30,857 nucleotides of DNA from a virus, in the IMG/VR virus record IMGVR_UViG_3300009285_006501, positions 1 through 30,857 of that record; one strand, 5' to 3'. The position numbers and the translations under genes were made by a program. This document shows positions 4,664-28,075 of the stretch, piece by piece. Numbering within the stretch: position 1 is the first letter of the stretch; each line of letters begins with the position of its first letter. Below the pieces are notes generated by a model. That model saw nothing but the letters and a program-made list of their open reading frames with translations. It did no database searches and was not told where the DNA came from.

Positions 4664-5389
4664 GTGGCGATAGGAATATATAGCCAGATTCAGCAACGCA
4701 TAAATGAACGGAGGGTTGAGCGGGCTCTGGTTGACCCCCACTACTGGTTCAGCCATTTTTGTTATACCTATGACCCTCACAGGAGACCGGCGGCTATTCG
4801 ACCGTTCGGCAATGTGTGTTACGCTGACCGGCCCGATTATAAGGGATACCTGGCGGAATTGATAAAGGTCATCCATGAAAACAACAGGGTGCTCATACCT
4901 AAATCGCGTCAAATGCAGGTTACGTGGACGGTTATCGGCTATTTTGTATGGGAGTCTATCGCCAGGGGGATGAGTTATACCTTTTTCCAGGCCCGTAAAG
5001 AGGGTGATGCCGGATGGGGGTCGGAAGGCAAAGGCGCTTTGGGCGGTGGATTCGAGCAGTTGCCGGGGCTTTCCCATTTGGCCCGCGCCAAGACCATCTT
5101 TGAGAATATGCCCGTTGATTTTGGATTGAAGATAAGCTGTCCGAAGAAACCGCCGAAGCTGATATTCAGCAATGGATCAACGCTCCATGCTGTCTCTCAG
5201 GATTCCGACGCCTTCAGGCAGTATACGGCCAGCGGGATATTCGCTGATGAAGCGGCTTTTCAAGAGAACGCCGGGCGGGCATTCACGGCGGCGTTGCCAT
5301 TGCTGGATGCCGGGTCGAAATATGTAGCCGTATCATCGGTGAACGGCAAAGACGAGTTTTTTTATCCGAAGGTGCACGACCTTGACTAA
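4664..5389 (+). CDS. terL: Terminase large subunit, N-terminal ATPase part
   Basis: This carries the packaging ATPase half of a large terminase. Residues 78-88 (IPKSRQMQVTW) are the variant Walker A of phage terminases, with K80, R82 and Q83 where the family has KSRQ-x-G; the usual glycine is Q85 here. Residues 191-196 (GIFADE) are Walker B with catalytic D195/E196, and AVSSVNG near the end fits the coupling motif. The frame stops at TAA 5387-5389, right after FFYPKVHDLD, where family members continue into the nuclease domain. That domain is encoded in the +1 frame from 5382. Start is GTG at 4664. Whether the split is real, programmed or a sequencing artefact is open. Confidence 0.9.
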   Translation: MAIGIYSQIQQRINERRVERALVDPHYWFSHFCYTYDPHRRPAAIRPFGNVCYADRPDYKGYLAELIKVIHENNRVLIPKSRQMQVTWTVIGYFVWESIARGMSYTFFQARKEGDAGWGSEGKGALGGGFEQLPGLSHLARAKTIFENMPVDFGLKISCPKKPPKLIFSNGSTLHAVSQDSDAFRQYTASGIFADEAAFQENAGRAFTAALPLLDAGSKYVAVSSVNGKDEFFYPKVHDLD

Positions 5390-6233
5390 TGGCATACAGA
5401 TTTCTCAGAACGCAAAGAACAAATTCACCATCATGCGGCTGCATTACTCCGCTGACCCCGAAAAGGATGAGAGATGGATGCAGGGCATCCGGTCGCAATA
5501 CAGCCCTGAAGCGTGGGACCAGGAGTATGAGATTGATTGGAATGTCTATATCGGTAAGCGGTTCTTCCAGGGCTTCAAAATAGACCTGCACGTAAAGCCC
5601 GTGCAGCCGGTGAAAGGAAAGCCGGTCATCAGAGGATGGGATTTTGGGTTCAGGTTCCCCGCGGTGGTTTTCTGCCAGAAGGTAGAGCTTCAGGGTGAAG
5701 CGGACCGGCTGTTGATATTTGACGAATACTTTATGCCGGACATTGAGTTGGAGGATTTCGCCGAGCGGGTTATTAACTATTCACAGAAAGAATACTCGGG
5801 GTTCAGTTTTAGGGATTTTTGCGACCCTGCTGGCAGTCAGGTAACAGATAAAGGCCCCCGCACAAGCATTGACATTCTCAATAAATATGGTGTCTGGCCG
5901 GGGTATAGGTATCTCAGAGATGAAAGCTATGGCTGGGGCATCATCCGGCAACAGTTGATACAGCGGCCAAGCGGAGAGGTGGGTTTGCACATTGCCCCTC
6001 GGTGCGCCTTGCTGTTACAGGGGTTTGGGGGAGAACTGCATTTCCCCGCTTACCGTGAAGGCCAGCGCATGAAAGACACCCCGGCGGAGAAGCACCCCTA
6101 TATAGACCTTTTCGATGCGTTGAAATATGCTGGCGTAGGACTCTTTGACATCAGGGAACAGCGTCCCATGGATAAAGAAGACCCCTACAAATATAAACAA
6201 ACTTCACCAGTTTACTCCTACATGGCGATGTGA
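5382..6233 (+). CDS. terL: Terminase large subunit, C-terminal nuclease part
   Basis: This continues the terminase in the +1 frame. It opens with a segment matching the bridge between the two domains (FTIMRLHYSADPEKDE) and then the RNase H-like nuclease. Metal-binding acidic residues are visible in GWDFGF (D87), FCDPAG (D148) and HPYIDLFDAL near the C-terminus. The first possible start is TTG 5382, 9 nt after a weak GAAGG, overlapping the ATPase frame by 8 nt. The frame is open upstream to 5343, so a +1 shift anywhere in 5343-5389 would fuse the halves. The enzyme cuts concatemers at packaging initiation and termination. Its TGA overlaps the portal ATG. Confidence 0.9.
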   Translation: MTNGIQISQNAKNKFTIMRLHYSADPEKDERWMQGIRSQYSPEAWDQEYEIDWNVYIGKRFFQGFKIDLHVKPVQPVKGKPVIRGWDFGFRFPAVVFCQKVELQGEADRLLIFDEYFMPDIELEDFAERVINYSQKEYSGFSFRDFCDPAGSQVTDKGPRTSIDILNKYGVWPGYRYLRDESYGWGIIRQQLIQRPSGEVGLHIAPRCALLLQGFGGELHFPAYREGQRMKDTPAEKHPYIDLFDALKYAGVGLFDIREQRPMDKEDPYKYKQTSPVYSYMAM

Positions 6234-26122: not shown

Positions 26123-26276
26123 CCACCTCTGCCTGACGTGCAGGCATGGGCTTGACCCGCCCCAAGTGGATAGATTGGGCTGGCCCCTATGCGGGATGCC
26201 GGAGCCGGACGCCTCGGTTGAGTATCGGCGAAAGCAATTGGAACGAACGGCGATTTATCCTGTTCTACGCCTATGA
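26115..26276 (+). CDS. Small cysteine-containing protein (53 aa)
   Basis: The frame starts at ATG 26115, inside the previous short frame. It has CX2C near the N-terminus (C6, C9), a His at 11 and a third Cys at 26 in WPLCGMPEPD, then a basic helix (YRRKQLERT). The Cys pattern suggests a small zinc-binding fold with an imperfect fourth ligand. No family is recognised. Its stop overlaps an upstream alternative start of the next gene. Confidence 0.5.
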   Translation: MADHLCLTCRHGLDPPQVDRLGWPLCGMPEPDASVEYRRKQLERTAIYPVLRL

Positions 26277-26308: not shown

Positions 26309-26587
26309 ATGACGCCTGAAAGTAACGATTTCCACCGACAGCAGCATGACCTGATGGCTGGATTCGTGGGCCGCATGACGGAGGCCACGGAGCATATCAG
26401 CCAGTCGCTCGACAAGAACTGGGAGCAACACGTCGCCCTGCAAAAAGGCATCGCGGAGCTCAAAGAAAAGCAGACCTTCAATGCTGGCAAATGGGTAGGC
26501 ATATCGGCAGGCATCGGCGCGGTGGCGGTCGTTATCGGCGTCCTGCTCAAGGTGCTGAGCGTCCTCAAATACGCGCTCGGCCAATAG
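26309..26587 (+). CDS. Single-TM, XhlA-like lysis-associated protein (92 aa)
   Basis: Residues 1-60 are a helical, charged segment (EATEHISQSLDKNWEQHVAL, about 25-44) likely to form a coiled coil. Residues about 62-83 are strongly hydrophobic (VGISAGIGAVAVVIGVLL), a single C-terminal membrane helix. That layout matches XhlA-type accessory holins and similar small phage membrane proteins. GGGAGG 9 nt upstream favours ATG 26309 over the in-frame ATG 26273, which would add 12 residues. It lies before the Panacea and peptidase genes, so a lysis role is likeliest. A membrane-acting toxin paired with Panacea is an alternative. Confidence 0.75.
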   Translation: MTPESNDFHRQQHDLMAGFVGRMTEATEHISQSLDKNWEQHVALQKGIAELKEKQTFNAGKWVGISAGIGAVAVVIGVLLKVLSVLKYALGQ

Positions 26588-26616
26588 AATGACATGCCTT
26601 TATGGGGGAATATAGC

Positions 26617-27192
26617 ATGGAACCTAAAGGGAGCATAGAAAAAAGCTTTACGCTTGATAGGCAAAAAATGAGAGAACTGATTATTTATATCAGTTCCAAA
26701 AATAAAGATGCACCCGAATTTGGCTCTACTGTTTTGAATAAAATGTTATTACATGCCGACATTTGGGCATATATCAGTCTTGGTAAACCCATAACAGGGG
26801 ACATATATGTTAGGAGAGAGTTTGGTCCCACGCCCAAGTCTTTGTTGCCCATTAGAGAAGAACTTGAAAATAAGGGTTGGCTTAAGGTAGTGGATGCTAA
26901 GAGGTTTAGCCATACCCAACATCGCCCTATGGCCCTGAGAATGGCAAAGAAGGAAGTCTTTACTAAAGATGAGTTGGAGGTCATAGATTTTGTAATTTCA
27001 GCACTTCAAGGGAAATCAGGGAAAGAACTTAGCGACATGACTCATCGGGAATTGATATGGAAGCACTGGCGCGAGGATGAAGAAATCTCCTATGAAGCTT
27101 TTTTTATTTCTGATATAAATCCAATATCCCAAGAGGATATGAGATGGGCGGTTAGTGTGGCGAATGAGTCAAGATTTAGTAGGACTGCTTAA
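26617..27192 (+). CDS. Panacea (SocA/DUF4065) antitoxin-domain protein (191 aa)
   Basis: Panacea is the antitoxin domain of SocA and PanAT toxin-antitoxin systems, and neutralises many unrelated toxins. Landmarks: LNKMLLHADIWAY (40-52), GKPITGDIYVRREFGPTP (56-73), LLPIREEL just after, and ELSDMTHRELIWKHW (137-151) near the end. The gene is visibly AT-richer and uses more A/T-ending codons than its neighbours, suggesting recent acquisition. GGGGGAA is 6 nt from ATG 26617. No separate toxin gene is recognisable next to it. It may serve as an anti-toxin shield against host abortive-infection systems, pair with the small membrane protein upstream, or regulate lysis. The domain call is firm, the role is not. 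Confidence 0.9.
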   Translation: MEPKGSIEKSFTLDRQKMRELIIYISSKNKDAPEFGSTVLNKMLLHADIWAYISLGKPITGDIYVRREFGPTPKSLLPIREELENKGWLKVVDAKRFSHTQHRPMALRMAKKEVFTKDELEVIDFVISALQGKSGKELSDMTHRELIWKHWREDEEISYEAFFISDINPISQEDMRWAVSVANESRFSRTA

Positions 27193-27193
27193 T

Positions 27194-27544
27194 ATGAGGA
27201 TACTCTGTAAGGAGGGCGTCTGGTTCAAGGAGTTGAATAAGTCGCTGATGGACTTCTCTGGTGTCCTCGACCGCCTATGGAGCGATTTCGGCCACGGAGA
27301 CCCCACCATCACGTCCGCCGCTGATGGCAAGCATGGCGTCAATTCCTATCATCCGCTGGGATACGCCTGGGACATCCGTATATGGGGCATGTCAGCAACC
27401 GAAGCGGAGACTGCGGCCAGCGCATTGAGGAACCAGTTGAGGGGAATCAATCCAGCCTATGACGTGGTTTACGGGGATGAGAAGCACAAGGACCATATCC
27501 ATGTGGAGTTTGACCTAAAACGGGCGGGAACTCTGGAGGGTTAA
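27194..27544 (+). CDS. Endolysin, peptidase M15 family (116 aa)
   Basis: This is a compact LAS-type metallopeptidase that probably cuts peptide bridges of peptidoglycan. Zinc ligands: H53 and D60 in HPLGYAWD (HxxGxAxD) and H103 in HIHVEFD; E96 is a candidate catalytic base. No signal peptide or binding domain is seen, so it needs a holin to reach the wall. I choose ATG 27194 because upstream in-frame starts lie inside the Panacea gene; AGGA is 9 nt away. At 116 aa it is near the single-domain minimum. A holin candidate follows after three bases. Confidence 0.9.
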   Translation: MRILCKEGVWFKELNKSLMDFSGVLDRLWSDFGHGDPTITSAADGKHGVNSYHPLGYAWDIRIWGMSATEAETAASALRNQLRGINPAYDVVYGDEKHKDHIHVEFDLKRAGTLEG

Positions 27545-27547
27545 GAA

Positions 27548-27718
27548 ATGCCTATCTGGAAGCGAAAAACATTCTGGGGCGCAGTGGTGGGGATGGCAAC
27601 GGCAACAGGGGCCTATCTATCCGGCGAGTTGACACTGGCCCTTTACATCGGGGCCATGTTTGCGGCCATGCAGACCATTTTCATTCGACAGGCCATAGAT
27701 AAACCCCCAGGAGGGTAG
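27548..27718 (+). CDS. Putative holin, two TM segments (56 aa)
   Basis: A short membrane protein: a positively charged start (MPIWKRK), a first hydrophobic helix (about 9-24), a tight turn with Gly/Glu, a second helix (about 28-46, LTLALYIGAMFAAMQTIFI), and a charged tail with RQAIDKPPGG. Two close helices with both ends probably inside resemble class II holins. Its place between the endolysin and the lipoprotein pair agrees. GGAGGG is 7 nt upstream. Confidence 0.72.
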   Translation: MPIWKRKTFWGAVVGMATATGAYLSGELTLALYIGAMFAAMQTIFIRQAIDKPPGG

Positions 27719-27720
27719 TA

Positions 27721-27975
27721 ATGGAAGGCAGCATCATCGGCATTGTCGGCATTGTGCTGGCTCTAATCCTCCGGTGGCTTAAGAAGAAGGACTCACCACA
27801 AGAAACCGAGAGGCGCATCCTTGAGGAGACGAAGGAGAAATTAGATGAACTGGCTAACGCACTTGCGCGGGGTGACCTTGACGATGCTGCTGGTCGCTTT
27901 GCTGAGTATTACAATCGTGTCCTGCTCAAAAGCCCCGCTGATAACAAGGGGCGGAACGATGGAAAAACTGGATGA
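27721..27975 (+). CDS. Single-TM protein of the lysis pair, possible i-spanin (84 aa)
   Basis: One N-terminal membrane helix (about 4-20, IIGIVGIVLALILRWL), then KKK (21-23) and a charged helix (about 28-68) likely to be coiled coil. It shares its distal part with the lipoprotein gene in another frame, the overlap seen in Rz/Rz1-type spanins. The Lys cluster after the helix would favour a cytoplasmic C-terminus under the positive-inside rule, which argues against a simple i-spanin. An antiholin is an alternative. GGAGGG gives a strong start. Confidence 0.68.
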   Translation: MEGSIIGIVGIVLALILRWLKKKDSPQETERRILEETKEKLDELANALARGDLDDAAGRFAEYYNRVLLKSPADNKGRNDGKTG

Positions 27976-28075
27976 TACTCATTATAAGGTCAACGATGTA
28001 TGGCTCTATCAGCAGTATGAGGCGGGACTCCTGCTTGAAAAGGACTTGGCGTTATGCAGAGAGGGCCTGAAATGA
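27845..28075 (+). CDS. Lipoprotein, probable o-spanin (76 aa)
   Basis: A lipoprotein signal is clear: a short start, hydrophobic core (about 11-25, VTLTMLLVALLSITIV) and a lipobox with Ile24-Val25-Ser26-Cys27. The mature part is about 50 residues, with YKVNDVWLYQQYEAG and a charged end. The gene begins inside the single-TM gene (AAGGAG 7 nt upstream), an Rz/Rz1-like overlap that points to outer-membrane disruption in the last step of lysis and to a Gram-negative host. It lacks the Pro-rich middle of classic Rz1. Its stop overlaps the next ATG. Confidence 0.75.
   Translation: MNWLTHLRGVTLTMLLVALLSITIVSCSKAPLITRGGTMEKLDDTHYKVNDVWLYQQYEAGLLLEKDLALCREGLK

What the first reader, a model, noticed from the sequence alone, without database searches (positions are those of the whole stretch)
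26617..27192. Lone Panacea antitoxin gene embedded in the lysis cassette
A clear SocA/Panacea domain sits between a small membrane protein and the endolysin, with AT-richer composition. Known Panacea proteins neutralise varied toxins, including membrane-acting ones. Options: a phage shield against host toxin-antitoxin defence; a toxin-antitoxin pair with the upstream single-TM protein; or a control on lysis timing. None appears established for this arrangement.
Basis: partly seen in the sequence, partly recalled or inferred. Interest (0 to 1): 0.75.

Follow-up and report, generated by a model that had tools for sequence, protein, structure and literature searches.

The report
Lone Panacea antitoxin beside phage endolysin
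A virus of bacteria carries, between two of its cell-bursting genes, a recently acquired antidote gene whose relatives nearly always sit beside their own toxin, but here the toxin is missing, so it may disarm a toxin of the infected cell.

Summary
Window 26617-27192 encodes a full SocA/Panacea domain (PF13274, E=1e-16) between a single-TM coil-like protein and a short LAS/M15-type endolysin, followed by holin-like and nested spanin-like genes. It is the most AT-rich stretch of its length in the record (GC 0.40 against 0.54; GC3 z=-4.2). A distant phage locus (L004) has the same small TM gene directly followed by the endolysin, without Panacea. So this is an acquired accessory gene, not a core lysis gene.

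What is unusual is the missing toxin. Of 26 phage Panacea loci read here, 22 have a candidate toxin next door. The nearest cellular relatives (28-34% identity) carry a RelE/HigB-like toxin downstream in 11 of 11 readable cases. That toxin is absent from the window. Panacea loci beside lysis genes recur (6 others), but as two-gene pairs at the cassette edge, the usual moron sites, never inside.

Best reading: a captured antitoxin kept without its toxin, probably countering a host RelE-like Panacea-controlled toxin (0.45). The main rival is a relic of a toxin-antitoxin moron that lost its toxin. Pairing with the upstream TM protein or control of lysis timing has no positive support, but neither is excluded. 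New variant of a known kind.

The parts
26617..27192 (+). Panacea (SocA/DUF4065) antitoxin-like protein, 191 aa, stand-alone domain, no partner toxin
   Evidence: PF13274 E=1e-16; phrog_1281; AF2 pLDDT 81.5; lowest-GC stretch of the record
26604..26609 (+). Shine-Dalgarno-like GGGGGA for the Panacea gene, 7 nt before ATG 26617
   Evidence: read directly from the sequence
26309..26587 (+). 92-aa protein, polar N-terminal half and one C-terminal TM helix; XhlA-like holin-accessory by layout only (ORF may start at 26273)
   Evidence: hydropathy TM 60-92; no Pfam, PHROG or PADLOC match; weak similarity to the equivalent gene of L004, E=0.005
27194..27544 (+). endolysin, LAS/M15-type peptidase motif (H-x6-D ... 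H-x-H); Shine-Dalgarno AGGA 27181-27184 lies inside the Panacea gene
   Evidence: alignment with L004, L005, L038, 39-43% identity, motif residues invariant
27548..27718 (+). 56-aa holin-like membrane protein
   Evidence: hydropathy and position; no family match
27721..27975 (+). i-spanin-like protein: N-terminal TM helix and charged C-terminal part
   Evidence: hydropathy; layout only
27845..28075 (+). o-spanin-like lipoprotein (SITIVSC lipobox) nested in another frame of the i-spanin-like gene
   Evidence: sequence and hydropathy; layout only

Best explanation
The gene is a stand-alone Panacea antitoxin captured by the phage, without its toxin, from a two-gene Panacea toxin-antitoxin system whose toxin was most likely of the RelE/HigB-like type. 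It was inserted between the small TM gene and the endolysin of a pre-existing lysis cassette and is probably co-transcribed with it. Most likely it works as a phage-borne counter-toxin: when infection lets a host Panacea-controlled toxin loose, the phage protein binds that toxin directly and keeps translation going long enough for virions and lysis proteins to be made. Shown here: the domain, the foreign composition, the absence of a partner, the empty site in a distant relative, and the RelE/HigB-like partner of all nearest relatives. Inferred: binding, the host target, expression and benefit.
For: Intact full-length domain with all invariant core residues. Foreign base composition confined to this gene. 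Empty site in L004: small coil-TM gene, 20-nt gap, endolysin. No Panacea in any of 29 records related by capsid or endolysin (many are fragments). The nearest cellular homologues carry the same downstream toxin family in 11 of 11 cases with readable flank, and so do phage relatives vir080, L055 and L057. The toxin profile's best, weak, PDB matches are HigB-2 toxins. No ORF of the window matches that toxin profile. Stand-alone Panacea domains can neutralise toxins directly (PMC10440598), and lone phage antitoxin mimics that bind host toxins are known, such as AdfB and Dmd (PMC11481870).
Against: Identity to any relative is at most 34%. On the tree the gene is a long branch outside the RelE-partnered clade and unresolved within its larger clade, so the target toxin type is uncertain, and natural PanA proteins are specific for their cognate toxin (PMC8832971). 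A place inside the lysis cassette suggests late expression, whereas AdfB is expressed early (PMC11481870). The host is unknown. Recent acquisition alone could explain intactness.
Confidence: 0.45

Rival explanations
1. Relic: a complete Panacea toxin-antitoxin moron landed in the lysis operon and the toxin gene was later deleted. The antitoxin persists as recent, near-neutral cargo without a present role.
For: Most phage Panacea loci are toxin-antitoxin pairs, several next to lysis genes. The gene is recent by composition. Lone Panacea genes are common: only about half of 2,281 were found in conserved two-gene loci (PMC8832971). Truncated phage Panacea ORFs exist (L059, L061, L062).
Against: The ORF is full length, keeps all core residues, has a good Shine-Dalgarno, supplies the endolysin's Shine-Dalgarno, and leaves no trace of a toxin between it and the endolysin.
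Confidence: 0.27
2. Toxin-antitoxin pair with the upstream single-TM protein (26309-26587) as a membrane toxin neutralised by the Panacea protein.
For: Validated Panacea-neutralised membrane toxins can have a coiled-coil N-terminal region and C-terminal TM helices (PMC8832971); toxin-first order occurs (PMC10440598; MPV1); the gap is 29 nt.
Against: A similar coil-TM gene precedes the homologous endolysin in L004, which has no Panacea. The composition of the upstream gene is that of the phage (GC 0.58) and not of the Panacea gene (0.40), so the two were probably not acquired together. No relative of the upstream protein was found in 50,697 phage records.
Confidence: 0.1
3. The partner toxin is encoded elsewhere in the same phage genome, outside this 30.9-kb fragment, or is an unrecognised ORF of the window.
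For: The record is linear and may be a fragment. Many Panacea toxins match no known domain (PMC8832971).
Against: Panacea toxins are as a rule adjacent; none of the window's ORFs of at least 40 aa matches the RelE/HigB-like partner profile.
Confidence: 0.1
4. Lysis-timing control: the Panacea protein binds the phage's own TM or holin-like protein and delays lysis, as an antiholin-like regulator.
For: Location between the TM protein and the endolysin; Panacea can contact the region before a toxin's TM helix (PMC10440598).
Against: A comparable cassette exists without it (L004); the protein has no TM segment; full-length Panacea genes inside lysis cassettes were not found elsewhere; foreign composition.
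Confidence: 0.06

Closest known systems
Panacea toxin-antitoxin systems (PanAT; SocAB, DUF4065, GepA/ps3)
   Same: Same domain over its full length, conserved core residues, stand-alone antitoxin architecture, on a mobile element
   Different: No adjacent toxin; the downstream gene is an endolysin; at most 34% identity to any relative found
RelE/HigB-like Panacea pairs of Patescibacteria, Methanobacteriota and phages vir080, L055, L057
   Same: Closest relatives by sequence; the Methanobacteriota members also lack an HTH domain
   Different: They keep the toxin directly downstream; Patescibacteria members carry an N-terminal HTH that the window protein lacks; the window protein branches outside them
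Phage antitoxin mimics (AdfB of ICP1, Dmd of T4)
   Same: Lone, phage-encoded antitoxin-like protein without its own toxin
   Different: AdfB and Dmd show little or no similarity to the host antitoxins and AdfB is early; here the gene is a recognisable antitoxin homologue in the lysis region; function untested
Lysis-adjacent PanAT morons (Listeria B025, Staphylococcus PHB21, Streptococcus Javan231 and Javan252, P. gingivalis 024a, Serratia OS31)
   Same: Panacea gene beside phage lysis genes on the same strand
   Different: Complete two-gene pairs outside the cassette, between lysin and integrase or between Q and holin

Membership tests
SocA/Panacea domain (PF13274) | Profile match over the curated cut-off across the domain | tested here: met
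   62.3 bits against a 25.7 cut-off, profile 1-113 of 113
SocA/Panacea domain (PF13274) | Conserved core residues and helical fold with a beta hairpin | tested here: met
   12 of 12 invariant columns kept; AF2 model with helices and hairpin 64-67/70-73 plus a second hairpin; best viral fold match is a Panacea protein
[quoted passage not shown]
   Downstream gene is an endolysin; no ORF matches the RelE/HigB-like partner profile; the upstream TM gene has a counterpart without Panacea in L004
PanAT type II toxin-antitoxin system | Toxicity of the partner and rescue or complex formation by the antitoxin | not testable with these tools
   Needs expression assays; co-folding of two proteins was not available
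Phage antitoxin mimic / counter-defence protein | Phage-encoded antitoxin-like gene without its own toxin | tested here: met
   the record may be a fragment, so a toxin elsewhere in the genome is not excluded
Phage antitoxin mimic / counter-defence protein | Directly neutralises a toxin of the host | not testable with these tools
   Host unknown; needs rescue and plating assays
Antiholin / lysis regulator | Conserved in the lysis cassette and required for timing | tested here: inconclusive
   A comparable cassette without the gene exists (L004); no TM segment; timing itself was not testable

The most novel reading that the evidence does not exclude
The Panacea protein has been recruited into the lysis programme and acts on the phage's own membrane lysis proteins (26309-26587 or 27548-27718), that is, an antitoxin domain turned antiholin.
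Probability: 0.06. Interest if true: 0.85.

Novelty: new variant of a known kind. Interest (0 to 1): 0.42.

Why it matters
Panacea antitoxins neutralise dozens of unrelated toxins. A phage that carries the antitoxin without the toxin would be a natural counter-defence tool, and would show how antitoxin mimics may arise: by capture of a real antitoxin and loss of its toxin. The target question is narrow and testable, because the nearest relatives all pair with one RelE/HigB-like toxin family.

Tried and rejected
Close relatives were not found: P0001 and the C-terminal part of the 1728-aa upstream protein gave nothing in viral contigs, and megablast of the structural region gave nothing in 50,697 phage records. 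Degenerate Panacea patterns reached 1 and 10 viral loci and 11 cellular loci; a third endolysin scan only returned the same three loci. I first took the Streptococcus 'ps3' Panacea genes as lone; reading the DNA showed an unannotated MazF-like ORF overlapping each, so they are pairs. PADLOC gave no match. Promoter-like and terminator-like sites are about as many as shuffles give. Sequence search of P0001 against PDB gave nothing useful; the fold search against PDB gave only a weak match to a DarTG complex chain (E=0.033, TM 0.41), not used as evidence. A tree of 37 Panacea domains puts the window protein in the half with RelE and MqsR partners but does not resolve its neighbours.

Full report
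What is there. The window lies in a 30,857-base virus record with terminase, portal, major head and other virion genes, a lysis region at about 26.3-28.1 kb, and then small genes, an exonuclease and an Erf-like annealing protein. The ORF at 26617-27192 encodes 191 residues. It matches Pfam SocA_Panacea over the whole profile (E=1e-16) and PHROG 1281. An AlphaFold2 model from 13 sequences has mean pLDDT 81.5, and its best viral fold match is annotated as a Panacea protein. Every column invariant among the 13 aligned relatives is kept, so the domain is not visibly decayed.

Neighbours. Upstream, 26309-26587 is a small protein with a polar N-terminal half and one C-terminal TM helix. It has no family match and no relative in the phage collection. 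Downstream, ATG 27194 starts a 116-aa endolysin two nucleotides after the Panacea stop. It has the H-x6-D ... H-x-H signature of LAS/M15 peptidases, invariant in three phage relatives at 39-43% identity, but no significant Pfam or PDB match. Then come a holin-like protein and two nested spanin-like ORFs, assigned by layout only. The whole is a plausible lysis cassette.

Acquired gene. The Panacea gene is the lowest-GC 576-bp stretch of the record (0.394-0.399 against a mean of 0.544), with GC3 4.2 s.d. below the other genes; the low-GC stretch begins and ends with the gene. In locus L004, whose endolysin is 43% identical, a small coil-TM gene is followed after 20 nt by the endolysin with nothing between. 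That small protein is weakly similar to the window's (E=0.005 in a single comparison). None of 29 records related by capsid or endolysin has a Panacea domain, although many are fragments.

What the relatives do. The closest cellular relatives (28-34% identity) are in Patescibacteria and Methanobacteriota. In 11 of 11 of the best places with readable flank the gene directly downstream, mostly overlapping, belongs to one toxin-like family. The phage relatives vir080, L055 and L057 have the same partner. A profile of that family finds HigB-2 toxins as its best, though weak, PDB matches (E=0.19), and one member touches the Pfam ParE toxin model (E=0.023); I call it RelE/HigB-like. No window ORF matches it. 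Two Patescibacteria loci of the earlier scan (L041, L046) have no such ORF downstream, so pairing is the rule rather than universal. Among 26 phage Panacea loci with a full domain and readable flank, 22 have a candidate toxin next door (21 downstream, 1 upstream). Without one are the window, a Megaira phage, Cylindrospermopsis phage Cr-LKS4 and Paenibacillus phage Dash. 'Candidate toxin' here means a small ORF directly adjacent; toxicity is untested.

Association with lysis genes. Six of those loci lie beside lysis genes on the same strand: Listeria B025, Staphylococcus PHB21, Streptococcus Javan231 and Javan252, P. gingivalis 024a and Serratia OS31. All six are two-gene pairs outside the cassette, between lysin and integrase end or between Q and holin. 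L062 has a truncated Panacea-like ORF overlapping a lysozyme gene. The window remains the only full-length Panacea gene found inside a cassette.

Mechanism. Stand-alone Panacea domains can neutralise toxins by direct contact (PMC10440598), and phages are known to carry lone antitoxin mimics such as AdfB and Dmd (PMC11481870). The most economical functional reading is therefore a captured antitoxin that protects the infection from a host Panacea-controlled toxin, most likely RelE/HigB-like. Steps shown: domain, foreign composition, missing partner, empty site, partner type of relatives. Steps inferred: binding, target, timing, benefit. The tree puts the protein outside the RelE-partnered clade on a long branch, and natural Panacea antitoxins are specific (PMC8832971), so the target is a lead only. 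The strongest rival is a relic of a pair that lost its toxin.

Verdict. A real feature, correctly read by the first stage. It is a new variant of a known kind: a Panacea antitoxin without toxin inside a phage lysis cassette. Function is untested; interest is moderate.

Noticed in passing
L070:2914-3429 and L071:2914-3429 (Streptococcus phages Javan231, Javan252): The 'ps3' Panacea gene after the lysin looks lone in the annotation, but an unannotated 140-141-aa ORF resembling the MazF-like partner of Listeria B025 overlaps its 3' end by 43 nt.
   Followed up: partly
L069:1736-2652 (Mycobacterium phage prophiGD12-2): The Panacea gene is annotated 'GepA-like toxin' and the next gene 'antitoxin', although the latter carries a Fic/Doc-like HAFFDGNKRTAW motif: the labels look swapped.
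   Followed up: no
L061:6001-6333, L062:5983-6183, L059:1300-1569: Phage ORFs that hold only the N-terminal half of a Panacea domain, without a toxin; the one in L062 overlaps a lysozyme (SLT) gene.
   Followed up: partly
L082:1822-3389 (Cylindrospermopsis phage Cr-LKS4): A lone Panacea gene lies between two annotated CRISPR arrays.
   Followed up: no
BFVD hits A0A3Q8Q497, A8TKI0, A0A2H4RBN9: Uncharacterised proteins of Sulfolobus viruses (SPV2, SSV4, SEV1) have predicted folds like the window's Panacea model (E 0.002-0.015, probability 1.00).
   Followed up: no
window 4664-6233: The terminase large subunit is spread over two overlapping ORFs (4664-5389 and 5382-6233) that match adjoining parts of phrog_2: natural split, frameshift or sequencing error not resolved.
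   Followed up: no
window 27721-28075: Spanin-like pair with the lipoprotein ORF nested in another frame of the TM ORF.
   Followed up: no
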